Assembly (NCBI RefSeq): GCF_014205165.1
Contig: NZ_JACHMZ010000001.1
Coordinates: 5,686,501 to 5,750,500, forward strand
DNA length: 64,000 bases
Origin: Micromonospora carbonacea
GTDB lineage: Bacteria > Actinomycetota > Actinomycetes > Mycobacteriales > Micromonosporaceae
Reading direction: 5' to 3'
Below, one piece after another: positions 445 through 61,267 of this stretch. The notes under the pieces were generated by a model. It saw only the letters and a list, made by a program, of their open reading frames with translations. It was not told the DNA's origin and ran no database searches. The position numbers and the translations under genes are program-made. Numbering within the stretch: position 1 is the stretch's first letter; every line of letters starts with the position of its first letter.

Positions 445-3400
445 TCAGGAGCTGGCGTTGTCCAGCACCCGGCGCACCAGCTCCTCTGGATCGAGTTCGT
501 CGATGGCGTCGCCGGGAGCCGGCTCGGGCCCGTCCGGCACCGCGTCGGCGTCCAGCCCCGCAAGCGCAAGCAGGCCGTCCAGTAGGCCGGCGTCCCGCAG
601 CCGGGCCAGCGGCAGGTCGGCCAGGGCCCGGCGCACCTCGGCCTCGCGCGGGTCGCCGCCGGCCGGCGCGGGACCGAGCAGCCCGGCCAGGTGCTCGGCG
701 ACCGCCGTCGCGGTGGGGTGGTCGAAGACGAGGGTGGCGGACAGCGGCACGCCGACCGCCGCCCTGAGCCGCTTGGCCAGGTCGACGGCGGTCAGCGAGT
801 CGAATCCGATCTCCCGGAACGCGGCGTCGGGGCCGACGTGCTCGGGCCCCGGGTGGCCGAGGACGGCGGCGACCTGCCGGCGTACCAGGTCGAGCAGGCC
901 CCGGCGGCGTTCGTCGGGGCTCGCGGCGGCGTGCCAGGCCGGCAGGTCGGAGCCCGCGGGTCCGGCGTCGGCCAGCGTCGCGCGGGCCTCCGGGAGGTCG
1001 CCGAGCAGCGGGCTGGGCCGGAACGCGGTGAACCCGGCCGTGAACAGCGTCCAGTCCACGTCGGCGACGGCGACGAAGGTCTCGTCCCGGTCCAGGGCGG
1101 CCAGGAGGGCGTCCACGCCACGCTCGGGAGGCATCGGCCGCAGGCCCCGGCGGCTCAGGTACTCCTCGGCGTCGCCCTCGCCCATGCCCCCGGAGCCCCA
1201 CAGGCCCCAGGCGACGGAGGTGGCGGTCAGCCCGGCGGCGCGCCGCCGTTCGGCGAGCGCGTCGAGGGCCGCGTTGGCCGCCCCGTACGCGCTCTGCCCG
1301 CTGCTGCCCCACACGCCCGCGTTCGACGAGTACAGGACGAACGCGTCCAGGTCGTGCCCCCGGGTGAGTTCGTCGAGGTGGCGGGCTCCGGCGACCTTCC
1401 CGGCGAACACCTCGGCGACGTCGGTGAGCCCGGTCTCGCCGATCGGCATCGAGTGCGCCACGCCCGCGGTGTGGAAGACCGCGCTCAGCGGCGCGTCGGC
1501 GGGCAGCCCGGCGAGCAGCGCCGCCACGGCGGCCCGGTCGGCGACGTCGCAGACCGCGACGGTCACCTCGGCGCCCAGCGCCCGGAGTTCCCCGACCAGC
1601 CCGGCCGCACCGGGGGCGTCGGCCCCGCGCCGGCTGGTGAGCACGAGGTGCGCGGCCCCGCCGGCGGCCAACCGCCGGGCCACGTGCGCGCCGAGCGCGC
1701 CGGTGCCGCCGGTGACCAGGACGGTGCCCCTGGGCCGGTACCGCCGCTTCGCGGGTAGCGCGGGGGCGCGCCGGAGCCGGCGACCGTACCCGACCGGGCC
1801 GCGCAGCGCGACCTGGTCCTCGTCCCCGGCCAGCACGTCCACGAACGCCTCCCACACCGGGCCGTCCGCGTCGGCGGGCAGGTCGACGAGCCCGCCCCAC
1901 GTGCGGGGCAGTTCGAGGGCCGCGACCCGGCCGAACCCCCAGACCTGCGCCTGGCGCTCGTCGGCGGTCTCGCCGGGCCCGACGGAGACCGCGCCCCGGG
2001 TGACGACCCACAGCCGGGCGGCCGGCAGGGCGTCGGCGACGGCCTGGGTCAGCAGCAACGTCGCGGCGGCGCCGACGGACACGGCCGGGTGGTCGGGGTG
2101 CGGGCGACGATCGGTGCCGAGCAGCGACAGCACCCGGGTCGCCCCGCCCGCACCGGCCGCGGTGAGCAACGCCGCGCACGCGGCCCGGTCGGTGCTGGTC
2201 GGCTCGACGGTCACCAGGCGCACCTCGGCGCCCCGCGCGGTGAGCGCGTCGCGCACCGCCTCGACCAGCTCCGCCGGCTGCTCCGGGCCGGTCACCAGCA
2301 GCCACCGGTCGGCCGGCGCGGCGCCGGTGCGCTGAAGCCGCCGCCAGCCGACCCGGTAGCGCCAGCCGTCCCCGGCCGGGCCGGAGTCCGCCTGCGCGGC
2401 GGGCTCCAGCCAGTAGCGTTGCCGCTGGAACGCGTACGTGGGCAGGTCCACGGCGACGCGCGCGGCCCCGGCCAGAGCCCGGGACCAGTCCACGGCCACC
2501 CCCTGGGTGAACGCCTCGGCCGCCGAGGCCAGGAGCCGGTCCAGGCCGCCCGCCTCCCGGCGCAGCGACCCCACGGCCACCACCCGGACGCCGGCGCTGT
2601 CCCCCAGCTCCTGGATCGCGGGTACGAGGACGGCGTGCGCGGCGGCCTCGACGAAGGCGCGGTGCCCGTCGTCGAGCAGCACCCGCACGGTCTCCTCGAA
2701 GCGGACCTGCCCCCGCAGGTTGCGGTACCAGTAGCCGGCGTCCAGGCCGGCAGTGTCGACGCGCCCGCCCTGCACCGTCGAGTAGAAGGGCACCTGCGCC
2801 GGACGGGCGTCGACCGGGCCCAGGACGGTGAGCAGCTCGGCGCGCAGCCGGTCCACCTGCGTCGAGTGGGACGCGTAGTCCACCGGGATCCGCCGCACCC
2901 GGACGTCCTCGGCCGCGAACGCCTCGACCAGTTCGGTGACCGCGTCGGCGGCACCGGACACGACGGTCGACTGTGGCCCGTTGACGGCCGCGACGTCGAG
3001 CCGGCCCGCCCAGGCGGCCAGCCGCCCCGCGACCTCCCGGGCCGGCAGCTGGACGGACGCCATGCCGCCGCGACCGGAGAGCACCCGACCGATGACCTGG
3101 GACCGCAGCGCGACCACCCGGGCCGCGTCCGGCAGGGTCAGCGCGCCGCAGACCACCGCGGCGGCGATCTCGCCCTGGGAATGGCCGACCACCGCGTCCG
3201 GCTCGACGCCGAGCGACCGCCACACCTGCGCCAGCGACACCATCACCGCCCAGGAGACGGGCTGGAGCACGTCCACGCGGTCCAGCGGCGGGCTGCCGGC
3301 CGCGCCCCGGATCACCTCGCCGAGCTTCCAGTCGGTGTGCGCCGACAGCGCCTGCTCGCACCGTCGCATCGACTCGGCGAACACCGGTGACTGGTCGAGC

Positions 3401-5169
3401 AGGTCGGCACCCATGCCGGCCCAGTGCGTCCCCTGCCCGGGAAAGACGAACACGGTGCGCCCGGTGGGGGCGGCGACGCCGGTCGTGACCGCCGGTCCGG
3501 GTTCGCCGCCGGCCAGCAGGTCGAGCGCGTCGAGCGCCTGCGGTCGCCCGGCGGCCGTCACCACCGCCCGGTGGTCGAACACCGACCGCGCGGTGGCCAG
3601 GGCGAGTCCGGCGCTGGCGAGGTCGGTCTCCGGCGCTGCGGCCAGCAGGTCGCGCAGCCGGCGGGCCTGCCCGGCCAGCGCCGGCTGCGACCTGGCGGAC
3701 AACACCAGCGGTACGACCGGCGGCGGGTCGCCGACGGGCCGGGTCTCGGCGGGCGGGGCGTCACCCGCCGGGGCGGCGGCGGGCCCAGGGGCCTGCTCCA
3801 GCACCACGTGCGCGTTGGTGCCGCTCACCCCGAAGGAGGAGACCCCGGCGCGGCGCGGGCGACCCGTGTCCGGCCACGGTGTCTCTGCCCGCAGCAGGGC
3901 CACCTGGCCGGCGGACCAGTCGACCTCGGTGGTCGGGGCGTCCACGTGCAGGGTGGGCGGCAGGACGCCGTGCCGCATCGCCAGCACCGTCTTGATGACC
4001 CCGCCGACCCCGGCCGCCGCCTGGGTGTGGCCGATGTTGGACTTCAGCGAACCGAGCCAGAGCGGACGGTCGGCGGGCCGGCCGGCACCGTACACGTTCA
4101 TCAGGGCCCGCACCTCGATCGGGTCGCCGAGCCGGGTGCCGGTGCCGTGCGCCTCGACCGCGTCGACGTCGGCGGCCGTCACCCGGGCGTCCACGAGCGC
4201 CTGGCGCAGCACCTTCTCCTGCGCCGGGCCGCTGGGGGCGGTGAGGCCGTTGCTCGCCCCGTCCTGGTTGACCGCCGTGCCGGTGACCAGGGCCAGCACC
4301 CGGCGCCCGTGGCGGACGGCGTCCGACAGCCGCTCCACGACCAGCATGCCGACCCCCTCGGCCGGCCCGAACCCGTCCGCCGAGTCGGCGAACGCCTTGC
4401 ACCGGCCGTCCGGGGCCAGCCCCCGCTGCCGCGAGAACTGCACGAACACCGCCGGGCTGGCCAGCACCGTCGCCCCGCCGGCCAACGCCAGGTCGCACTC
4501 GCCCTGCCGCAGGGCCCGCACCGCCAGGTGCAGGGCCACCAGCGAGGACGAGCAGGCGGTGTCCACCGTCAACGCGGGCCCCTCCAGGCCCAGCGCGTAC
4601 GAGATCCGCCCCGAGGTGAAGCTGACCACCCCGCCGGTCAGCAGGTGGCCCTCCAGTTCCGCCGGGGGCTGCCCGACGACGTCGGTGTAGCCGCCGTGCC
4701 ACGCCCCGACGCACACCCCGGTACGGCTGCCGCGCAGCGAGTCCGGGGGGATCCCGGCCCGCTCCAGCGCCTCCCAGGACGTCTCCAGCAGCAGGCGCTG
4801 CTGCGGGTCCATGGCCAGCGCCTCGCGGGGCGAGATGCCGAAGAACGCGGCGTCGAAGTCGCCGACCCCGGCGAGGAACCCGCCCTCGCGGCAGTAGGTG
4901 CGGCCCGCCGCCTCCGGGTCCGGGTCGTACAGCGCGTCGCCGTCCCAGCCGTGGTCGTCGGGGAACGGGGAGATCGCGTCCGTGCCCGAGGCGACCAGCT
5001 CCCACAGTTCCTCCGGTGAGCCGACCCCGCCGGGGTACCGGCAGGCCATGCCGACGATCGCGATCGGCTCGTGCGCCCGCGCCTCGACCGCGCGCAGCCG
5101 GTCGGTGGCCCTGGCCAGCTCGGTGGTGGTCAACCGCAGGTACTCGCGGAGCTTCTGCTCGTTCGACAT
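445..5169 (-). CDS. Type I PKS, module 6 (KS-AT-KR-ACP)
   Basis: This 1574-residue single-module PKS adds one methylmalonyl unit and reduces the beta-keto group to a hydroxyl. Domains by approximate residue: docking coiled coil 1-35, KS 40-457 with DTACSSS near 205, AT 577-880 with GHSQGE near 663 and the methylmalonyl motif YASH near 765, KR with VTGGTGALG near 1152, ACP with [10 protein letters not shown] near 1453, then an acidic C-terminal docking tail. The KR keeps Ser and Tyr (YSSNAGVW...SAY), has Trp eight residues before Tyr and lacks LDD, so it looks A-type. That would set the C-5 hydroxyl carrying the amino sugar in rosamicin/tylosin-type macrolides. The ATG at 5169 is preceded by AGGAGGGAC; an in-frame upstream start at 5205 is possible but less likely. 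It lies 61 bp downstream of the module 4-5 gene. Confidence 0.93.
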
Positions 5170-5230
5170 GCCGCCTCGTCCCTCCTGACCGTCGGTCCCG
5201 TCCACCCCGTCCCTCGCGTACGCGGGGTCG

Positions 5231-16468
<11,238 letters not shown>

Positions 16469-49661: not shown

Positions 49662-49987
49662 GTTGATCTTGGTCGAGTCATCCGGTCCTACCGCGGCGCG
49701 TGAGTCCATCTGTTCGCGGTCAGGCCCCAGCTTTACGGGACGGCGTCCGACCCAGTCCATCGCGCGCTGGCCCCGTCCCATCGCGCGCGAGCACCCACGG
49801 AGACACCGCATGGATCATGACAACCAGCTGGCCACGGATCACGGTAGGCCCTGGGCCATGCTCGCGCAGAACCACTCACACGGACTGGGCCCACTCTCAC
49901 TCACCGATCCGGGGGTCACGCGTACCTGAACGTCCTACAACGACAGTCGGTCGAGCCATGTCTCGACGCAAGGGCGGCACCTAGAGT
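49617..49987. repeat. Right copy of diverged direct repeat containing the tRNA-Lys fragment
   Basis: Counterpart of 42072-42452. It fills the space between the integrase hairpin and the DUF429 gene and has no coding potential of its own. Its end, GGCACCTAGAGT, is 6 bp before the DUF429 start codon, so the repeat includes the upstream region of the defence-like operon. Confidence 0.8.
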
Positions 49988-49993
49988 GTTGCG

Positions 49994-50764
49994 GTGCTGA
50001 CCCTCGGCGTCGACCTCGCAGCGGCGGACAAACGTACGGCGATGGCGACCATCGAATGGCTGTCGGACCGCGCAGTGGTGCGAGACGTGGCCCTCGGCGT
50101 CAGCGACGCCCAGATCGTCAAGGCCAGCCAGGACGCGGACAAGGTCGGGCTGGACTGCCCACTCGGCTGGTCGGAACCCTTCGTCGCGCTCGTCACGGCC
50201 CACCGGTCCGGCCACGTCTCCGTCGATGACGGCGATGCTGCGCGGTGGCGGCGTCGTCTGGCCTACCGGTTGACCGACGAGGTGGTACGCGAGACGACCG
50301 GCATCATTCCGCTCAGTGTGGCCGCGGACCGCATCGCTCATGCCGCTTTCCGGTGCGCCGGGCTGTTGGCGATGCTGGCCGCCGCCGGCCAGGACGTCGA
50401 CCGTTGCGGCGACGGCAAACTCGTCGAGGTCTACCCGGCTGCGGCCCTGTGCCGCTGGGGTCTGACGTATCGCGGTTACAAGGGGCGGGGCCAGAAGACG
50501 CAGCATGCCGACCTCGTGACCGCGCTCTGCGCGGCCGCACCCTGGCTCGAGCTGGGTGCTTCCGAGGCGCTGTGTCGCCGCAGCCACGACGCCTTCGACG
50601 CGGTCATCGCGGCCCTCAACGCACGTGCCGCCGCCATAGGCAGGGCGACCCGACCCGACGACGAGCAGCGGCAGGTCGCAGGGGTCGAGGGCTGGATCGC
50701 CCTGCCCACGGGGCCGCTCAGCGACCTTGTCGGCGGCACCGGAGCAGGCGGGAGGCGCTCATGA
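49994..50764 (+). CDS. DUF429-family protein (RNase H-like fold), first gene of defence-like operon
   Basis: A 256-residue protein of the DUF429 family, which is predicted to have an RNase H-like nuclease fold. Conserved acidic positions fit that fold: GVDLAAADK at the N-terminus, LDCPLGWSEPF near 55, AADRIAHAAF near 110, VEVYPAAALCRWG near 143, and HDAFDAVIAALNAR near 198. No activity has been shown for most members. The start is GTG at 49994 without a clear Shine-Dalgarno. Its stop overlaps the start of the DUF6361 gene (ATGA), so the two are translationally coupled. Standing first in an operon with a PLD-fold protein and a helicase, it may supply or modulate nuclease activity; this is inference. 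Confidence 0.8.
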   Translation: MLTLGVDLAAADKRTAMATIEWLSDRAVVRDVALGVSDAQIVKASQDADKVGLDCPLGWSEPFVALVTAHRSGHVSVDDGDAARWRRRLAYRLTDEVVRETTGIIPLSVAADRIAHAAFRCAGLLAMLAAAGQDVDRCGDGKLVEVYPAAALCRWGLTYRGYKGRGQKTQHADLVTALCAAAPWLELGASEALCRRSHDAFDAVIAALNARAAAIGRATRPDDEQRQVAGVEGWIALPTGPLSDLVGGTGAGGRRS

Positions 50765-51996
50765 CCTCGGGGCTGAGTTGGCTGGACACTTCTCGCGAGG
50801 ATCAGCAGCGCATGCGCGAGTTGCTCAAGCTCTTCAGCGACACGGAGAGCCGGGACGAGCTGGGCATCGGTCAGGTCCGCGACGCGTTCAGCGACCTGCT
50901 GTTTCCCGGCACGTCGGTCCTGCAGAACCGGGCACGTTATCTGTTGATCGTGCCCTGGTGCTACCAGGAGGCGCAGAAGCGTGGGCTACGTGGTGACCGC
51001 CTCGCCGCGCGGGTCGACCGCAACGAGCGGAAGGTGATCGCCGCTCTGCTGCGTGGCAGCGACACGGAGGGCATGATCGGCAGGCGTGCCGGAGTCGGGG
51101 TCCGCACCCTGCCCTCGAACATCTACGCCGTTGCTCTCGAGGAGTACGGCATCCGCAGCGGTGAGGATGACACGGCACCGGACCGACGGCTGGTATCCCG
51201 GCTGGCCGAGGCTGATGAGCTGACCGACCGGTCGCGCGGCAGCTGGCATCCGACCCTGCCCGGGGCACCGCCGAACTTTCCACAGAAGGTCGAGGGCGGG
51301 CTGAGGCTACTCCCAGACGAGGCCCGTTGGCTGCGCGAGCGGATCATCGCCGCGGTGCCCGGCACCCTGCTGGCGTACCTCCTCGAGCCCGCGCATCGCC
51401 CTGGGTCGGAGGGCGATGCGCCGTGGGACGAGCCGATGGCACTGGCCGCGCCGGAGCCGATCGGTTCCCTGGTTCGGGACGCGCAGCGCTTCTCGCTGGC
51501 GATGCATGGTGCGGCGCTGTTGTACAACCTGCTCGTCGCCGAGCGGTACGAGCGGGCGGGCCTGTCCGAGCATGAGGAGCCGGCCGCCCGATACCGCGAC
51601 AGCCTGTCGGAATGGAGCGGTCGGGTGTCGACGGAGCAGAGCCTTAAGGGCTGGGATCGGTCGGGGATGTGGACGCGGCTGATCGAGAAGAATCCCCGGA
51701 TCAGCACGAACGTCAAGGTCCGGCAGTTCATCGAGCGGTGGCTCGACGCGGTGACCAGCAGGGCTGCCGGCGAGGCGGCCAGCGACCCGGCCCTGCGGGA
51801 TCTCGTCGGCGAGCGGGAGCGGTCGGTGAAGAAGGGCCAGTCGCGGTTGGTCAACGACAAGTTGTTGCGTACGTGGAGTGGCGCGTCGGGTAGCCGGCAG
51901 TTGGTGTTCCGTTGGCCGCAGGTTCGCCGGATCCTCGCCGACATCCACGACGGTTGCGCTGCTGGTCCTTCGGAGGCTGCCGGTGCTCGCGCCTGA
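50761..51996 (+). CDS. DUF6361-family protein, second gene of defence-like operon
   Basis: A 411-residue cytoplasmic protein of the DUF6361 family. It opens with SGLSWLDTSREDQQRMRELL and contains the family's core TSVLQNRARYLLIVPWCYQE near 45 and GVRTLPSNIYAVALEEYGIR near 110. No catalytic motif is recognisable. DUF6361 genes are found next to PLD-fold and helicase genes in predicted phage-defence loci; from memory, the Azaca system has this composition. The ATG at 50761 follows GGGAGG and overlaps the DUF429 stop. Its end overlaps the next gene by 14 bases. Role in the complex is unknown; a structural or target-recognition part is plausible. Confidence 0.8.
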   Translation: MTSGLSWLDTSREDQQRMRELLKLFSDTESRDELGIGQVRDAFSDLLFPGTSVLQNRARYLLIVPWCYQEAQKRGLRGDRLAARVDRNERKVIAALLRGSDTEGMIGRRAGVGVRTLPSNIYAVALEEYGIRSGEDDTAPDRRLVSRLAEADELTDRSRGSWHPTLPGAPPNFPQKVEGGLRLLPDEARWLRERIIAAVPGTLLAYLLEPAHRPGSEGDAPWDEPMALAAPEPIGSLVRDAQRFSLAMHGAALLYNLLVAERYERAGLSEHEEPAARYRDSLSEWSGRVSTEQSLKGWDRSGMWTRLIEKNPRISTNVKVRQFIERWLDAVTSRAAGEAASDPALRDLVGERERSVKKGQSRLVNDKLLRTWSGASGSRQLVFRWPQVRRILADIHDGCAAGPSEAAGARA

Positions 51997-53734
51997 CTCC
52001 CGCGCGCTGTTGCTCGACGCGTTGCGCCCACCGCCGGGGGCGCGGTTGTGCCGGGCGGTGGCGTTGACGTTCACCCTGGATCTGGAGAGCCTGCTGGTCG
52101 CACCGTTGGCGTTCGCCGCGCATGGCCTGCGGGAGTCGGCGGACCCGATCGCGGTCATGGAGGGTGTGCGGCGCTGCGCGGACCGCATCGATGTGTTCTG
52201 TCAGGCGGGGCAGATCGTGGTGCCGTCAGGGGCGTCGGCGCTGTTGGCGTTCGTCGAGCCGATGGTGCACCAGGTGCACCGGCCCAAGCCGGGTCACCTG
52301 TTTCACCCGAAGCTGTGGGCGCTGCGGTTCCGCGACGACACGACGGGAGAGGTGTCGCTGCGGCTGCTGGTGCTCAGCCGCAATCTGACCAAGGATCGCA
52401 GCTGGGACGTGTGCCTTCGGTTGGATGGCGTGCCCGGCACCCGCCCGAGGAAGGACAACCGGCCTCTGGCTGATCTTCTGCGGCATGCGGTGCGGCTGGC
52501 GGTCACGCCGCTGCCGGCCGCGCGGCACGCGGCGATCGAGGCGCTGTGCGAGGACCTGCGTCGCGCCGAGTGGGAACCACCTGAGGATGCTCAGGGGATC
52601 GTCTTTCACGCCCTGGGGGTGCCTGGTGGCCGCCCGCCGGATTTTGCGGGGACGCGGCACCTGGTCATCTCGCCGTTCTGCACGCCGGGTGGCCTGAACC
52701 GGTGCGCGCCCAGCGGGGCGCTGTCGGTGGTGAGCCGGCAGGAGGCGCTCGACCGTCTGCCCGAGGAGAGCCTGGCCGGTTCCGAGGCGTTCGTGGTCAG
52801 CGCCTTGGCCGGTCTGCCCGCCGAGGAGGCGCCGCCCGGTCAGGAGGTGCTGCACGGGCTGCACGCGAAGGTGTACGTGGTGGAGAAGGGCCACCAGGCG
52901 CGGGTCCTGCTCGGCTCGGCGAACGCCACCGAGGCGGCGTTCGGCGGGAACGTCGAGTTGCTGGTGGAACTGGGCGGCAGCCGGAACCGGTGGGGGATCA
53001 ACGCCCTCCTCGGTCCCGACGCCGGTTTCCGGGAGATCCTCGAACGGCACGAACGCCAGGACGTCACCGAGCCGGAACCCGACACCGGTTTCCTGCGCGA
53101 TCTCATCCGGGACATCGCCGCCATACCCATGTCGGCCACCGTCACGACCTCAGCCGGCGGCTACGAGATCCGGCTCGACTCGCAGGAAGCCGTTCCAGAG
53201 GTGACGGGCGTGCGGATCACCGCGCAGTTGCACACCCGCCGTGGGGAAGCCGTGCCGCTGGTTCCGGGCCAGCCGGTGTCCGCGGTGTTCGCCGGGCTCG
53301 CGTTGGCCGACATCACCCCGTTCGTCCTGGTGGTCGCCGAAGACGGCACGGGCCGGGAGCAGACCGTCGTCCTCGCCACCCTGATCGGTGACCCCGCCCA
53401 CCGGCTCGACCACGTCCTCGCCCAGCAGATCGACACGCCGGAGAAGTTCCTGCGGTTCCTGCTGTTGATGCTCGGCCTCGGCACCGAGGCTGCCGCCGCC
53501 GTGACCGGCGACGACGGCGGGCAGGGCATCTGGCGTACCGGCGGCACCGGCATCCTCGAACTGCTGCTCAACGCTCTCGTGGACCGCCCGGAGCAGCTCG
53601 ACGACCTAGCCCGGTTGGTCACCCGTATCGAAGCCGACGGCGACAGCAGGCGGCTGCTGCCGCCCGGATTCACCGAGCTGTGGCGGGTCATCAACCAGGC
53701 ACGGGACGCGAGCGCAGAGGCGGTAGGCCGGTGA
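51983..53734 (+). CDS. Phospholipase D-fold protein, third gene of defence-like operon
   Basis: A 583-residue protein with a PLD-type fold. An HxK motif appears twice: FHPKLWALRF near 112 and GLHAKVYVVEKG near 300, the latter followed by the typical LGSANATEAAF near 320. Such domains in restriction and defence systems act as nucleases. The C-terminal 200 residues contain no known motif. GTG at 51983 is chosen because GGAGG lies just before it, although the frame is open 35 codons further inside the DUF6361 gene. Its stop overlaps the helicase start (GTGA). A PLD nuclease plus SNF2 helicase pair also occurs in DISARM (DrmC with DrmA/D), but here the companion genes differ. Confidence 0.82.
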   Translation: MLAPDSRALLLDALRPPPGARLCRAVALTFTLDLESLLVAPLAFAAHGLRESADPIAVMEGVRRCADRIDVFCQAGQIVVPSGASALLAFVEPMVHQVHRPKPGHLFHPKLWALRFRDDTTGEVSLRLLVLSRNLTKDRSWDVCLRLDGVPGTRPRKDNRPLADLLRHAVRLAVTPLPAARHAAIEALCEDLRRAEWEPPEDAQGIVFHALGVPGGRPPDFAGTRHLVISPFCTPGGLNRCAPSGALSVVSRQEALDRLPEESLAGSEAFVVSALAGLPAEEAPPGQEVLHGLHAKVYVVEKGHQARVLLGSANATEAAFGGNVELLVELGGSRNRWGINALLGPDAGFREILERHERQDVTEPEPDTGFLRDLIRDIAAIPMSATVTTSAGGYEIRLDSQEAVPEVTGVRITAQLHTRRGEAVPLVPGQPVSAVFAGLALADITPFVLVVAEDGTGREQTVVLATLIGDPAHRLDHVLAQQIDTPEKFLRFLLLMLGLGTEAAAAVTGDDGGQGIWRTGGTGILELLLNALVDRPEQLDDLARLVTRIEADGDSRRLLPPGFTELWRVINQARDASAEAVGR

Positions 53735-56700
53735 AGAGGTACGACGCAGGGCCGGTCATGGCCGGCCTGAAAGACTTCCAGCGCGCCACCGTCGCGCATG
53801 TCGTCGACCGGTACTTCGGTGCCGACCCGACCCGCCGGTTCCTCGTCGCCGACGAGACCGGACTCGGCAAGAGCGTCGTCGCCCGGGGCGTCATCGCCCA
53901 AACCCTGCAACGGCTGCAGGACGACGACAGCGTGGAACGGGTAGACGTCATCTACGTCTGCTCCAACCAGGACGTCGCCCGGCAGAACATCGACCGGCTG
54001 CGGGTCACCGCCGACAAGACCGTCACCCTGTCCAGCCGGCTCACCCTGCTCGCCAAGCACGCACACAAGCTCAACGCGGCGACCGCCACCACCGGCAAGC
54101 CGATCAATCTGATCGCGTTCACCCCGGGCACCTCCTTCGACCAGGGCTGGCGGACCGGCGCCGTGGAGGAGCGGGCGCTGATCTTCCTGCTCCTCGAACA
54201 GGCCCACTCGTGGGGCGGCTGGCGCTCCCGAGCAGCGCTGCGCGCGTTGCAGGCGACCGTCGCCACCCCTGAGAAGTTCGAGGATCAGTGCAACAGGCTC
54301 TGGGAGCAGCTCCAAGGAGAAGTCGACCCGACGATCGCCGAGGGATTCCTGCGTCGTGCCCGCCACGGCGGCCTGCTCGACGAGTTCGACGCGCTACTCG
54401 ACGGCATCGGTCGACGCCGCGCCCTGCCCGACGCGCTGCGGGAGAAGACCCGCAAGCTCACCGGTGCCCTGCGAACGGCGCTGGCCACCGCCGGTGTCGA
54501 GGTCCTCGACCCGGACCTGGTCATCCTCGACGAGTTCCAGCGCTTCCGGGAACTCCTCGACCCGAACGGTGGCGACAGCGCCGAACTCGCCCGGCACCTG
54601 TTCGACCATCGAGCCGCCCGGGTGCTGCTGCTGTCGGCCACCCCATACAAACCGTTCACCTTCGCCGAGGAAGCCGGCGCAGGCGAGGACCACTACCGCG
54701 ACTTCCGGCAGGTCCTGCGCTTCCTCACCGACGACGAGTGCTGGCACGCCGACGTGACGAAGACCTTCGAGGCGTACCGGGACGCCCTGGTCCGCGGCGA
54801 ACCCTGCGGCGACCTGCGCGGCCGGCTGCGCGCCCTGTTGTTGCGGGTCATGTGCCGCACCGAACGGCCCTCGCTGGGCCAGGACGGGATGCTGAGTGAA
54901 CACCTCGACCTCGCCGACGACCTCGACACCCGTGACGTGCGCGGCTACGTGGCGATGCGTCGGGTCGCCGACGCCGTCGGCGCACGGATGTCGGTCGAGT
55001 ACTGGAAGTCCGCCCCCTACTTCCTGAACTTCCTCGACGGCTACCAACTCGGCGACAAGGTCCGAAAAGCACTCGACGGCAAGCCGGACCCCGACGTCAC
55101 CGCGCTGCTGGCCACCGCGCAACTGCTCGACGCCGACACGATCGACCGACGAGAACCCGTCGATCTCGGCAACGGCCGGCTACGGCGACTCGCCGCGGAC
55201 ACCGTCGACCGGGGCTGGTGGCAACTGCTGTGGCTGCCCCCATCCCTGCCGTACCACACGCTCGACGAACCGTTCGCCACCGCGGCGGCCGAAGGCATCA
55301 CCAAGCGGCTGTTGTTCTCCTCCTGGAACGCCACCCCCACCGCGGTGGCCGGACTACTCAGCTACGAGGCCGAACGCCGGCTCGGCGGCCATGGGGAGGG
55401 ACACCGGCACCTCGACTACCGCACCGAGAACAACCGCCCAGCGGCCATGAGCGCCCTGGCACTCTTCTGGCCCCATCCCGCCCTGGCCACACTGTGCGAC
55501 CCGCTGGCCCTGGCCCGGCAGCGACCGGACGAGACCGCGCCGCTGGCCGTGTTCGAACGCGAGGTGCGGGAGCGGCTGCTCGCTCGTGCTTCCACCGATA
55601 CGGCGGTCACCGAAGCGACCCCAGCCGAGCCGTGGGAACTGGTCTTCCGGTGGCCCGGCGCCGACCCCGGCTGCGACGACGCCGCTGCCGCCCTGGGTAC
55701 CTCCGCCGACGAGGACGCAACGGCCACCGGCCTGGACCGACACGTGGAGCGAGCCCGGGAGCTCGCCAGCAACCCCCGCTACCCGGCAGCGGACCATCTC
55801 CACGGTCTGCTCGGCAGCGTCGCGGCGATCGGCATGCACGCGCCGGGCAACATCGCCTGGCGGGCACTGTCCCGACTGATCCACCCCGACGACGCGGTCA
55901 CACCAGTCGGGCACTGGCGCGCCGCGGCGGTACTGGCCAACGGACTGCGGTCCCTGTTCAACCGGCCTGAATCCGCCCAACTGCTCGACAGCCTGTCCAT
56001 GGGCCCGGTCTACTGGCAGGCGGTACTGCGCTACTGCGCCGCCGGTGATCTACAGGCCGTCCTCGACGAGCACCTGCACACCCTACGCAGCGGCACCGCC
56101 GACACCCGCCTCGACGACGAGAACCTCTACCGGCTCGCCGACGAGGCGCGGCAAGCGATCGCCAGCCGACCGTCAACCTACGAAGCCTTCAACCCGCACC
56201 ACCCCGCCGAGCGGATCAAACTGCCCGGCCGGTTCGCGCTGCGCTACGGCGGCCGCGGCGAAGAACAAACCCAGGCAGACCGCAAAGCAGTCGTACGCCG
56301 AGCCTTCAACAGCCCCTTCTGGCCGTTCATCGTCGCCACCACCAGCGCCGGCCAGGAAGGCATCGACTTCCACCAGTGGTGCTCCGCCGTCGTGCACTGG
56401 AACACCCCCGCCAACCCCGTCGACTTCGAACAACGCGAAGGCCGAGTCCACCGCTTCGGCGGACACGCCGTACGCCGCAACGTCGCCGCCGCACACCGTG
56501 CGGAGGCCCTGCGCTCGCCCGAACCGGACGTGTGGAAAGCCCTCTACGACGCGGCACGAGCAGAATCCGGGGAACTGGGCGACTTCGCGCCGTACTGGGT
56601 GTTTCCCGGGCCGGCGAAGATCGAACGACACGTCCTGCCCTACCCACTCAGCCGCGACCAGGCAAAACTCGACCGGCTCAAGTCGGACCTGGCGACATAC

Positions 56701-56826
56701 CGACTGGCGTTCGGCCAACCACGGCAGGAAGACCTGCTGAACCTGCTCCGACGACGCACCACTGACCCGGCCGGAGCACCCGACATCCTGGACCTGCGAC
56801 CGGCTGTGGAAAGGAAACCTGAGTGA
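53731..56826 (+). CDS. Large SNF2-type DEAD/DEAH helicase, fourth gene of defence-like operon
   Basis: A 1031-residue superfamily 2 helicase. Motif I is ADETGLGKSVVA near 52, motif II LVILDEFQRF near 270, motif III LLSATPYK near 308. The C-terminal RecA domain ends with TSAGQEGIDFHQWCSAVVHW near 880 and the arginine-finger motif QREGRVHRFGGH near 910. About 500 residues lie between the two RecA domains, a large insertion as in other defence helicases. It probably translocates on DNA and delivers it to the PLD-fold partner. GTG at 53731 overlaps the PLD stop. Downstream is a decayed small gene and then IS elements, so the 3' end of the operon has been damaged. Confidence 0.85.
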   Translation: MKRYDAGPVMAGLKDFQRATVAHVVDRYFGADPTRRFLVADETGLGKSVVARGVIAQTLQRLQDDDSVERVDVIYVCSNQDVARQNIDRLRVTADKTVTLSSRLTLLAKHAHKLNAATATTGKPINLIAFTPGTSFDQGWRTGAVEERALIFLLLEQAHSWGGWRSRAALRALQATVATPEKFEDQCNRLWEQLQGEVDPTIAEGFLRRARHGGLLDEFDALLDGIGRRRALPDALREKTRKLTGALRTALATAGVEVLDPDLVILDEFQRFRELLDPNGGDSAELARHLFDHRAARVLLLSATPYKPFTFAEEAGAGEDHYRDFRQVLRFLTDDECWHADVTKTFEAYRDALVRGEPCGDLRGRLRALLLRVMCRTERPSLGQDGMLSEHLDLADDLDTRDVRGYVAMRRVADAVGARMSVEYWKSAPYFLNFLDGYQLGDKVRKALDGKPDPDVTALLATAQLLDADTIDRREPVDLGNGRLRRLAADTVDRGWWQLLWLPPSLPYHTLDEPFATAAAEGITKRLLFSSWNATPTAVAGLLSYEAERRLGGHGEGHRHLDYRTENNRPAAMSALALFWPHPALATLCDPLALARQRPDETAPLAVFEREVRERLLARASTDTAVTEATPAEPWELVFRWPGADPGCDDAAAALGTSADEDATATGLDRHVERARELASNPRYPAADHLHGLLGSVAAIGMHAPGNIAWRALSRLIHPDDAVTPVGHWRAAAVLANGLRSLFNRPESAQLLDSLSMGPVYWQAVLRYCAAGDLQAVLDEHLHTLRSGTADTRLDDENLYRLADEARQAIASRPSTYEAFNPHHPAERIKLPGRFALRYGGRGEEQTQADRKAVVRRAFNSPFWPFIVATTSAGQEGIDFHQWCSAVVHWNTPANPVDFEQREGRVHRFGGHAVRRNVAAAHRAEALRSPEPDVWKALYDAARAESGELGDFAPYWVFPGPAKIERHVLPYPLSRDQAKLDRLKSDLATYRLAFGQPRQEDLLNLLRRRTTDPAGAPDILDLRPAVERKPE

Positions 56827-57136
56827 CAGACCAGCAGCCTGGCAGCTCATCCTCACCGCAGCCCGCCAACTGGCGAACCGCGAGCCCACCTTCAGCCGAA
56901 CGGAGCTGATCACTCAGGTCCAACGATTCGAGCCGACGCGGCGTTCCGATCATCCAAGGAATGACCCGGGACACCACCGGCGGCCCACCAAGCCCGTGCG
57001 GAACCCCGCTCATCCGCCTCAGCCAAGGTCAGTACACGCTCGAGCGCAACAGCCAACGACCCCCTTCCCCCGCACCTCAGCAGCCAGCGGTCCCGGCCGA
57101 ACGCCCACAAGGGCACCTCTTCGGATTTCCGGTACG
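56823..57136 (+). pseudogene. Decayed small gene at the end of the defence-like operon
   Basis: A gene of about 100 codons is readable only across frames. GTG at 56823 overlaps the helicase stop and gives VTDQQ; then another frame reads WQLILTAARQLANREPTFSR and ELITQVQRFEPTR; then a third reads VPIIQGMTRDTTGGPP and LIRLSQGQYTLERNSQ, ending at TGA near 57136. The combined sequence looks like a small winged-helix-like domain found beside defence and restriction genes (DUF7669 type, from memory). At least two frameshifts break it. It was probably the fifth gene of the operon and its loss may have disabled the system. Confidence 0.55.
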
Positions 57137-57251
57137 GTGAAGCCGATCATGCCGTCGCCGGAGCTGGTTTCCCTTTTGTGGCATGAGATCTCGCGGTTGC
57201 GTCCACGGAAGTGGTGTACGACTTGCCCGTGTTGGGCGTGTTGCGTAGATG

Positions 57252-58588
57252 AGAGACGGCCATCGCGTCGATCCTTCAAGACGACCAAGTCAGAGAAGGA
57301 AGAGAGAACGCGATGGCCGCTTCAGAGAGTGTGAACCCCGTTGACCTGCTGCGCGAGCAGATCGAGGGCGCGTCGCCGGACGTGTTGCAGGCGATGATCA
57401 AAACGTTCGCGCAGGCGGTGATGTCCGCCGAGGCCGACGCGATCTGCGGCGCCGGTTACGGACAGCGCAGCGACGAGCGGGTCAACTCCCGCAACGGCTA
57501 CCGGCCTCGGGAGTGGGACACCCGGGCCGGCACGATCGACCTGGCGATCCCGAAGCTGCGGCAGGGCTCCTACTTCCCGGACTGGCTGCTGACGCACCGG
57601 CGGCGGGCCGAGCAGGCCCTGGTCTCAGTGGTCGCCACGAGCTATCTGCTCGGGGTGTCGACGCGGCGGGTGGAGAAGCTGGTCGAGCAGCTCGGGATCC
57701 GGCAGCTGTCGAAGTCGCAGGTCTCGGAGATGGCCGCCCACCTGGACGCCCAAGTCGAGGCGTTCCGCAACCGGCCCCTCGACGCCGCCCACTACACGTT
57801 CGTGTGGACCGACGCGTTGACGATGAAGGTCCGCGAGCACGGCCGCACCGTCAACGTCCACGCTCTGGTCGCCGTCGGGGTCAACGCCGACGGCCAACGT
57901 GAAGTCCTCGGCGTCGACGTCGCCTCGGACGAAGACGGGGCCGGATGGCTGGCATTCCTGCGGTCCCTGACGGCCCGCGGACTGTCCGGCGTCCAGCTCG
58001 TCATCTCCGACGCCCATCGCGGCCTCGTCGCAGCGATCGGCGCCGCGCTGCCCGGCGCCGCCTGGCAACGATGCCGCACCCACTACTTGCGCAACCTGCT
58101 CACGAAGGTCCCCAGATCGGCGCAGCCGTGGATCGCCACCCTCGTCCGCACGATCTTCGACCAGCCCGACGCCGACGCCGTCCACGCCCAGTTCCGGCGG
58201 GTCGTCGCCACGATCGAAGCGAAGTTCCCCGCTGCGGCCGAACACCTCGACGCCGCCCGCGACGACCTGCTCGCCTTCACCGGCTTCCCCCGCGAGATCT
58301 GGCGCCAGATCTGGTCCAACAATCCCCAGGAGCGGTTGAACAAGGAGATCCGCCGCCGCACCGACGTCGTCGGCATCTTTCCCAACCGGGCGGCGATCAT
58401 CAGACTCGTCGGCGCGGTCCTGGCCGAGCAGACCGACGAGTGGACCGAAAGACGCCGCTACATGGGCCTGGAACTCCTCGCCAAAGCCCGCCTGATCACC
58501 GTCGACACCCGCCAACACGACACCGACCAGCCCAACGCAGCACCAATCGCCGCATAGCATCAGACCGGATCACGCGATGGCCGTCTCT
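57252..58588 (+). mobile_element. IS256-family insertion sequence, complete
   Basis: The element is bounded by a perfect 16-base inverted repeat: AGAGACGGCCATCGCG at 57252-57267 and its complement at 58573-58588. Imperfect matching continues inward. It contains one full-length transposase gene. No target-site duplication is visible at the two borders, which suggests rearrangement after insertion, possibly with the adjacent IS3-type element 20 bp to the right. Confidence 0.85.
57313..58557 (+). CDS. IS256-family (Mutator-type) transposase
   Basis: A 414-residue transposase, full length for the family and with no frameshift. The DDE triad can be placed: Asp in YTFVWTDALTMKV near 162, Asp in LVISDAHRG near 235, and Glu in SNNPQERLNKEIRRR near 340. 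The N-terminal NSRNGYRPREW and PKLRQGSYFPDW segments are typical. ATG at 57313 has GGAAGAGAG just upstream. It catalyses movement of the surrounding element and looks active. Confidence 0.93.
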   Translation: MAASESVNPVDLLREQIEGASPDVLQAMIKTFAQAVMSAEADAICGAGYGQRSDERVNSRNGYRPREWDTRAGTIDLAIPKLRQGSYFPDWLLTHRRRAEQALVSVVATSYLLGVSTRRVEKLVEQLGIRQLSKSQVSEMAAHLDAQVEAFRNRPLDAAHYTFVWTDALTMKVREHGRTVNVHALVAVGVNADGQREVLGVDVASDEDGAGWLAFLRSLTARGLSGVQLVISDAHRGLVAAIGAALPGAAWQRCRTHYLRNLLTKVPRSAQPWIATLVRTIFDQPDADAVHAQFRRVVATIEAKFPAAAEHLDAARDDLLAFTGFPREIWRQIWSNNPQERLNKEIRRRTDVVGIFPNRAAIIRLVGAVLAEQTDEWTERRRYMGLELLAKARLITVDTRQHDTDQPNAAPIAA

Positions 58589-59823: not shown

Positions 59824-61267
59824 CCGGTGCAGCAGACCCGCAGGAGTTGGCTCAGACCAACTTGACCTCGGCGACGGCCAGGTCACGCTGCCCGAGTGGC
59901 AGACACTGATCGAACGAGATCTTTTCAACCTTCCGGCCGAACACCCGGGCATCACCGGCCGCAGCCTCTTTAGCTTCCTCATGCGAAGAGTCGGCTCACA
60001 CGCCTTCAACGAGGCCACCCGCAGCTTCGCCCGCCAGGCGAACGCCGAAGCGGCCACATCGCTGGCGTACCTACTAGGGCTGGACTGGCGGCTCGCCGAT
60101 CGCTACCGCGAGCTACAGGCCCGCGAAGCCGTCAGCAAGCAACTCCGTAAAGCCGCCTCCGATCCGGTTCTTGGACGAATCATCGGTCAGACCGCAGAGC
60201 TCCGAGGCCAGATCGCCATCGCGGAACACCGTGTCGCGGAGATCCAACGACGGATCGAAAACTTCCGGGTAGTCCCGGAGTACGACAACCTCCGCGCCCA
60301 AGCCGACCAGACCGACCAGCGCATCCGCCAGCTTCGCAACGACGACGTCATCGACCGGCGCAACCTCGCCGACCTGGAACGGGCCGTCGACGAAACCGTA
60401 GACCCCGACCTCGCCTACCTCGAAACAGCCTACGCAGAACTCGGCGTGGTGCTCGGTGACCAGGTGCGTCGAAGCTTCGACGACGTACGGGCGTTCCACG
60501 GATCCGTTGTCCGTAACCGGCGCCAGCACCTGGACGAAGAGGCCTCGGCGATCAGATCACGCCTCCAGGAACGCGAGGCCGAGCGAGAACAACTCGGTGA
60601 CCGACTCGCTGCAACCCTGCGCACCCTGAACGAAGGTGGCGCACTAGACGCGCTAACCACCCTTCAACAGATCCTGGCTCAGGAGCAGGCACAACTCGGA
60701 GCTCTCCGGCACCGCTTCGACGCCGCACAGGCGCTCGAATCAAACCGTCGCGAGATCAAGCAACAGCGCGTCGGTCTCCAACAGGAGATGGAAAGTGACA
60801 TCGAAGAGCGGCGGTCAATCGTCAATGATGCGGTCATCCTTTTCGCCCAGTACGCCCAAGCCCTCTATGGCGCCAACCGCGAGGCATACCTCCGTATCGG
60901 TCCAGGCGAAACCAGCCTGAAGATCGAGACGCACATCGCGAGCGACAACAGCGGCGGCATCGGCAACATGGTCATCTTCTGTTTCGACCTCACCGTCGCC
61001 GTCCTAGCGCACCGAAGCGGGCGAGCACCGGACTTCTTCGTCCACGATAGCCATCTCTATGACGGCGTCGACGAACGCCAACTCGCCCGCGCCCTCACCC
61101 TCGCAGCAGAGGTGAGTCGCCAAGAAGGACTCCAGTACATCGTCACACTGAACTCCGACGAACTTGACAAAGCCATTCGCCGCGGCTTCGACCCAGCCGG
61201 CCATGTCCTCGAACAACGGCTCACCGACAGCTTCGATGAAGGTGGGCTTTTCGGATTCCGTTTCTAA
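59824..61267 (+). pseudogene. DUF2326-family SMC-like ATPase, 5'-truncated by IS3
   Basis: The frame is open from the IS3 border: DQLDLGDGQVTLPEWQTLIE, then SLAYLLGLDW near residue 80 and a long coiled coil (about 90-330, rich in Glu, Arg, Gln, Leu), then the ATPase C-terminal lobe with SGGIGNMVIFCFDLT and FFVHDSHLYDGVDERQ (signature and Walker B/D-loop equivalents), ending GLFGFRF. The N-terminal Walker A lobe is missing because the gene begins at the IS3 element. An ATG at 59981 could start a shorter product but it would not bind ATP. Proteins of this family are the SMC-like ATPases of ABC-three-component-type defence modules (from memory). No partner gene is recognisable next to it. Confidence 0.8.

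What the first reader, a model, noticed from the sequence alone, without database searches (positions are those of the whole stretch)
49994..57136. Defence-like operon: DUF429, DUF6361, PLD-fold protein, SNF2 helicase and a lost fifth gene
Four genes overlap by 4-14 bases each, so they form one translational unit. A helicase with a very large insertion plus a PLD nuclease fold recalls DISARM and Azaca, but no methylase is present, PLD and helicase are separate proteins, and a DUF429 RNase H-like protein leads the operon. The combination may be an undescribed variant. It sits in an island with other defence remnants.
Basis: partly seen in the sequence, partly recalled or inferred. Interest (0 to 1): 0.75.

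Follow-up and report, generated by a model that had tools for sequence, protein, structure and literature searches.

The report
Azaca phage-defence operon with extra gene
This is a known three-gene bacterial anti-phage system called Azaca that, in this group of soil bacteria, has gained an extra leading gene for a predicted DNA-cutting enzyme.

The parts
49980..49987 (+). promoter-like -10 block (CCTAGAGT here) ending 6 bases before the DUF429 start codon; suggests a leaderless transcript starting at DUF429
   Evidence: the block, or a near match with one to three changes, precedes DUF429 in all 15 loci compared; promoter function is inference
49994..50764 (+). DUF429 gene, 256 aa, predicted RuvC-like fold, predicted nuclease
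50761..51996 (+). zacA (DUF6361), 411 aa, predicted almost all-helical, no clear PDB fold match
   Evidence: PDLC03828 429.8 bits over 1-399; AlphaFold pLDDT 82.9; no Foldseek match at E 0.001 or below
51983..53734 (+). zacB, PLD-fold protein with two HxK...N motifs (H108/K110/N134 and H294/K296/N314), 583 aa
   Evidence: PDLC03829 563.7 bits over 1-576; these residues at least 93% identical in 28 chosen loci
53731..56826 (+). zacC, SF2-type helicase with large insertion between lobes, 1031 aa
   Evidence: PDLC03830 1106.8 bits over 2-1024; helicase motifs kept in 28 chosen loci
56823..57137 (+). remnant of a fifth gene (DUF7669 part only), broken by a frame change and cut short
   Evidence: tblastn of the intact relative from G009 hits in two frames; the intact relative has DUF7669 + DUF6884 + a weakly HhH/4Fe-4S-like C-terminus
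57313..58557 (+). Mutator-family transposase just behind the fifth-gene remnant
   Evidence: PF00872 475 bits
59981..61267 (+). remnant of another defence gene (ABC-3C CTD10 + DUF2326); not part of Azaca
   Evidence: PF10088 and PF20275; PDC-M68B matched from profile position 158 on, so the N-terminus is missing

Best explanation
The operon is a chromosomal Azaca anti-phage system (zacA-zacB-zacC) of a Micromonospora, led by a clade-specific accessory gene, DUF429, that encodes a predicted RuvC-fold nuclease. Shown by computation: family identity, order, intact motifs, clade-wide linkage, low dN/dS; the fold is a prediction. Inferred mechanism: ZacC moves along incoming DNA as a motor, ZacB is the phosphodiesterase/nuclease, and ZacA is the adaptor or sensor that loads or restrains them. 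DUF429 most likely cuts branched or recombining DNA (replicating phage DNA or intermediates left by ZacBC), widening or sharpening the response; this last step is the least certain. The fifth gene was an occasional add-on, a glycosylase-like protein, and is lost here; the Azaca core probably does not need it, since most Azaca loci examined lack it. The confidence given covers the Azaca identity and the motor-plus-nuclease core; a working role of DUF429 is about an even bet, and the passenger rival below differs only in that part.
For: ZacA/B/C profile matches of 430/564/1107 bits over nearly the full length. The same three genes in the same order in 12 of 12 plasmid loci fetched of 41 records, archaeal Halomarina included; in one (L007) zacB is annotated in two pieces. 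PLD and helicase motifs kept in 28 of 28 loci chosen for display. DUF429 immediately upstream in 11 of 14 genus Azaca loci, two of the 11 with a broken zacA. Of 14 DUF429 copies at 74% identity or more in 160 genus genomes, 12 touch zacA or its remnant. Median dN/dS: DUF429 0.18, zacA 0.19, zacB 0.23, zacC 0.17; pairwise identities of DUF429 and ZacA correlate (Pearson 0.82, Spearman 0.58, 36 pairs of 9 loci). The 10 loci with DUF429 that could go on the ZacA tree fall in a clade of 12 (97/98 support). Promoter-like block before DUF429. RuvC-like fold. A separate DUF429 clade lies divergently beside a ZacB-like PLD plus helicase operon in 4 of the 6 genus genomes that have that operon. A more distant pair, ZacA 61% and DUF429 70%, both from Micromonospora sp. 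NPDC004704, is listed with the same longest contig length, which suggests linkage (adjacency not tested). Azaca is listed as of unknown mechanism in PMC10482375 and PMC12926258 (passages).
Against: 3 of 14 genus Azaca loci and 8 of 9 Azaca loci in other genera of the family lack DUF429; 0 of 6 other phylum loci and 0 of 12 plasmid loci have it. DUF429 stays as an open frame where Azaca is broken or absent (G003, G085, G072, G728, G086), though not in G059, so it may have its own role. 19 of 19 examined DUF429 loci outside the family show no Azaca or M27-like gene. The linkage rests on about two gains, so relatedness inflates the counts. Foldseek gave no match at E 0.001 or below for the DUF429 model (best 4.5e-3). 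No activity was tested.
Confidence: 0.8

Rival explanations
1. Azaca is as described, and DUF429 is a passenger: an independent gene (perhaps a single-gene defence candidate like PADLOC PDC-S44) that landed upstream of zacA and now only lends its promoter. This rival shares the Azaca core with the best explanation and differs only about DUF429.
For: Confined to one ZacA clade; absent from most other Azaca loci examined; stays open where Azaca is lost; DUF429 matches PDC-S44 at 38 bits; relatives elsewhere sit mostly in ordinary-looking contexts.
Against: Kept with zacA across diverged species with matched divergence and low dN/dS; the two copies not now beside zacA nest inside the Azaca-linked clade; a second DUF429 clade beside a related PLD-helicase operon.
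Confidence: 0.37
2. An undescribed DISARM-like variant.
For: ZacC shares helicase stretches with DrmD (47.9 bits) and DpdE (56.9 bits); ZacB shares a short PLD match with DrmC (19.3 bits).
Against: All far below the curated cut-offs (610, 500, 133), while Azaca models match over nearly full length; no methylase or DrmB-type match among the four proteins.
Confidence: 0.03
3. The operon in this strain is decaying and inactive: the fifth gene was needed and its loss disabled the system.
For: Fifth gene is broken and an insertion element follows it; broken Azaca copies occur in the genus (G003, G085, G072) and in another genus (G728).
Against: All four remaining genes are open with intact motifs; the operon of G024 (92-94% identical proteins) is open and has no fifth-gene match; among the loci held only G009 has an intact fifth gene.
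Confidence: 0.1

Closest known systems
Azaca (ZacA-ZacB-ZacC)
   Same: All three proteins, order, overlapping genes, PLD and helicase motifs
   Different: Extra DUF429 gene in front, preceded by its own conserved promoter-like block, and a fifth-gene remnant behind; neither belongs to PADLOC's three Azaca models
PDC-M27 (PADLOC candidate) and the M27-like operon of G123, G137, G127, G103
   Same: Unknown protein, ZacB-like PLD (76.6 bits to ZacB), helicase; also next to a DUF429 gene
   Different: Different first gene (26.4 bits to PDC-M27A) and helicase (266.5 bits to PDC-M27C), DUF429 divergent instead of leading; separate DUF429 clade
DISARM / Dpd
   Same: PLD plus SNF2-type helicase parts; the fifth gene's DUF6884 domain occurs in DpdC (PMC11888242, passage)
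   Different: Curated models far below cut-off; no methylase or base-modification genes among the four
RuvC Holliday-junction resolvases
   Different: No sequence-family match to RuvC; substrate unknown
Brig1-type defence glycosylases (fifth gene only)
   Same: Brig1 removes modified bases from phage DNA (PMC11078745, passages); the fifth gene's C-terminus weakly resembles a base-excision enzyme
   Different: Kinship was not tested; the fifth gene also has DUF7669 and DUF6884 and is broken here

Membership tests
Azaca | ZacA (DUF6361) homologue | tested here: met
   429.8 bits, profile 1-394 of 396
Azaca | ZacB PLD-fold homologue | tested here: met
   563.7 bits, profile 1-583 of 586; both HxK motifs present
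Azaca | ZacC helicase homologue | tested here: met
   1106.8 bits, profile 2-1016 of 1019
Azaca | adjacent genes in order A-B-C | tested here: met
   window coordinates; same order in 12 of 12 plasmid loci fetched of 41 records
Azaca | protection against phages | not testable with these tools
   no experiment
DISARM | DrmC and DrmD at curated cut-off | tested here: not met
   19.3 against 133 and 47.9 against 610 bits
DISARM | DNA methylase and DrmB in the operon | tested here: not met
   no such match among the four proteins; the downstream genes scanned are transposases and an ABC-3C remnant, plus one protein without a match
Dpd | DpdE at curated cut-off | tested here: not met
   56.9 against 500 bits
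RuvC resolvase | RuvC-like RNase H fold | tested here: met
RuvC resolvase | membership in the RuvC sequence family | tested here: not met
   only DUF429 matched in Pfam
RuvC resolvase | cleavage of Holliday junctions | not testable with these tools
   no assay

The most novel reading that the evidence does not exclude
DUF429 is a RuvC-fold nuclease recruited, apparently at least twice, as a working fourth subunit of ZacB-type PLD-helicase defence systems (Azaca and an M27-like operon), and the slot in front of zacA is a general docking place for lineage-specific nucleic-acid enzymes (DUF429 in Micromonospora; a PD-(D/E)XK nuclease plus UvrD helicase pair in rhizobial plasmids).
Probability: 0.4. 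Interest if true: 0.55.

Novelty: new variant of a known kind. Interest (0 to 1): 0.38.

Why it matters
Azaca's mechanism is still listed as unknown (PMC10482375, PMC12926258; passages). A recurring RuvC-fold partner would point to branched or replicating DNA as the thing it acts on, and makes that testable. It also suggests that three-gene detection models miss lineage-specific accessory genes. If DUF429 is only a passenger, the locus is an ordinary Azaca.

Tried and rejected

Rows dropped: of 17 genus ZacA hits, 3 at E 7e-4 to 9e-4 were set aside as partial matches and their surroundings not inspected; of 20 genus DUF429 hits, 2 short fragments (G140, G117) were set aside. The dN/dS set is 9 of the 11 genus loci with DUF429, the two with broken zacA left out; one of the 9 (L027) has DUF429 and ZacA in one open frame and was still used, and L029 lacks zacC because its contig ends. 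The ZacA tree left out the fragments of G085, G072 and G728. Outside the family I fetched 19 of 34 DUF429 places, and judged their neighbours by eye and by tblastn only, not with defence models. Plasmid loci are 12 fetched of 41 records; one of the 12 (L052) has no annotation.

Full report
What is there. The four genes lie at 49994-50764, 50761-51996, 51983-53734 and 53731-56826 on the + strand with overlaps of 4, 14 and 4 bases. The window is a stretch of a single-contig 7.5 Mb genome; a ZacA of 97% identity named 'unclassified Micromonospora' places it in or near that genus. The surroundings look like an accretion zone: very long polyketide-type genes fill the left half of the window (by eye); then come a partial integrase, the operon, a Mutator-family transposase, an integrase-core transposase and an ABC-3C remnant.

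Identity of genes 2-4. PADLOC's ZacA, ZacB and ZacC models match over nearly their full length with 429.8, 563.7 and 1106.8 bits. NCBI's DISARM and Dpd models score far below their cut-offs. The same three genes in the same order occur in 12 of 12 plasmid loci that I fetched, of 41 records with a ZacA match, from Bradyrhizobium to Cronobacter to the archaeon Halomarina; in one, L007, zacB is annotated in two pieces. They also occur in loci of the family and phylum. Over 28 chosen loci ZacB keeps two HxK...N motifs and ZacC keeps its helicase motifs (motif names recalled). So the core is Azaca.

A second association. Four genus genomes carry DUF429 copies of 54-58% identity, a separate clade with 100/100 support. 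In all four the gene stands divergently beside an operon of a 435-residue protein (26.4 bits to PDC-M27A), a ZacB-like PLD protein (76.6 bits to the ZacB model) and a helicase (266.5 bits to PDC-M27C); the start codons are about 140 bases apart in three, and about 1 kb apart in the fourth, where another gene lies between. That PLD protein occurs in 6 of 160 genus genomes; the other two lack a DUF429 beside it. The two remaining long copies (G059, with a stop inside, and G086) nest within the Azaca-linked clade and sit near other defence genes, a PglW gene in G086 and an OLD-like ATPase in G059. Thus the 18 long DUF429 copies found in the genus are tied to a PLD-helicase operon by position (16) or by descent (2).

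Results against a general role. In the family outside the genus 9 genomes have ZacA and only one, G728, has DUF429, beside a broken zacA. In a phylum sample 8 of 396 genomes have ZacA; none of the 6 outside the genus has DUF429 nearby, though two of those contigs are under 5 kb and one ZacA match covers only 76 profile positions. None of 12 plasmid loci has it. In a class sample 35 of 394 genomes, G000 and G085 included, have a DUF429 relative; in 19 of 19 loci fetched, of 34 outside the genus, there is no Azaca or M27-like match, and the neighbours look mostly ordinary by eye, with a TIR-like gene in L170 and a NERD-like gene in L176 as exceptions. DUF429 also remains open where Azaca is broken or gone (G003, G085, G072, G728, G086), though not in G059. 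These fit either a self-standing gene that was captured, or an accessory subunit gained late.

The fifth gene. In G009 an intact 528-residue gene begins at the end of zacC and holds DUF7669, DUF6884 (159.7 bits) and a C-terminal part with sub-threshold HhH-GPD and endonuclease III iron-sulphur matches. In the family 153 of 354 genomes have some match to it; most of those listed cover only about residues 250-440 at 31-40% identity. The window keeps only the DUF7669 part, in two frames, with a transposase behind it. DUF6884 is YaaA-like, and one member was found among binders of DNA lesions (PMC11701544, passage); it also forms DpdC (PMC11888242, passage). Similar genes or pieces occur away from Azaca (G706, G576, G711), so this is an optional add-on.

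How it probably works. Shown by computation: three conserved proteins with nuclease and helicase motifs and a leader with a predicted RuvC fold and low dN/dS. Inferred: ZacC is a DNA motor, ZacB the nuclease, ZacA the adaptor, and DUF429 a structure-selective nuclease that acts with or after them on branched phage DNA. No experiment here bears on activity.

Verdict. A real operon; core already known; the DUF429 leader is a clade-level accessory that I did not find described in the papers searched.

Noticed in passing
L005, L006, L007, L054, L055 (bases about 2800-9000): In 5 of 11 annotated plasmid Azaca loci a PD-(D/E)XK nuclease and a UvrD-type helicase gene stand directly upstream of zacA, all in rhizobia and relatives; possibly another accessory pair.
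   Followed up: partly
L081-L084: A three-gene operon (435-aa protein, ZacB-like PLD, PDC-M27C-like helicase) with a divergent DUF429 gene; may be a second Azaca-like family.
   Followed up: partly
L032:1501-3087: Intact DUF7669-DUF6884-HhH/4Fe-4S-like fusion gene behind zacC in G009, a possible base-excising defence enzyme.
   Followed up: partly
L031:5255-6325: A DUF6884-containing gene stands divergently, two genes upstream of DUF429-zacABC in G141.
   Followed up: no
L027 (G047): DUF429 and zacA lie in one continuous 665-codon frame; a natural fusion or a sequencing error.
   Followed up: no
window 59981-61267: Truncated ABC-3C type component (CTD10 + DUF2326, PDC-M68B) next to several transposases.
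   Followed up: partly
L047 (about 6035-7987): An ATPase gene with a RecF/SMC-like start (by eye) lies directly upstream of zacA in G416, another occupant of the same slot.
   Followed up: no
L170, L176: Two of the 19 DUF429 loci outside the family have a TIR-like or NERD-like gene nearby, by eye; the L170 locus also has a DUF6884 match.
   Followed up: no
window 445-35759: Very long modular genes that look like a type I polyketide synthase cluster, unrelated to the finding.
   Followed up: no
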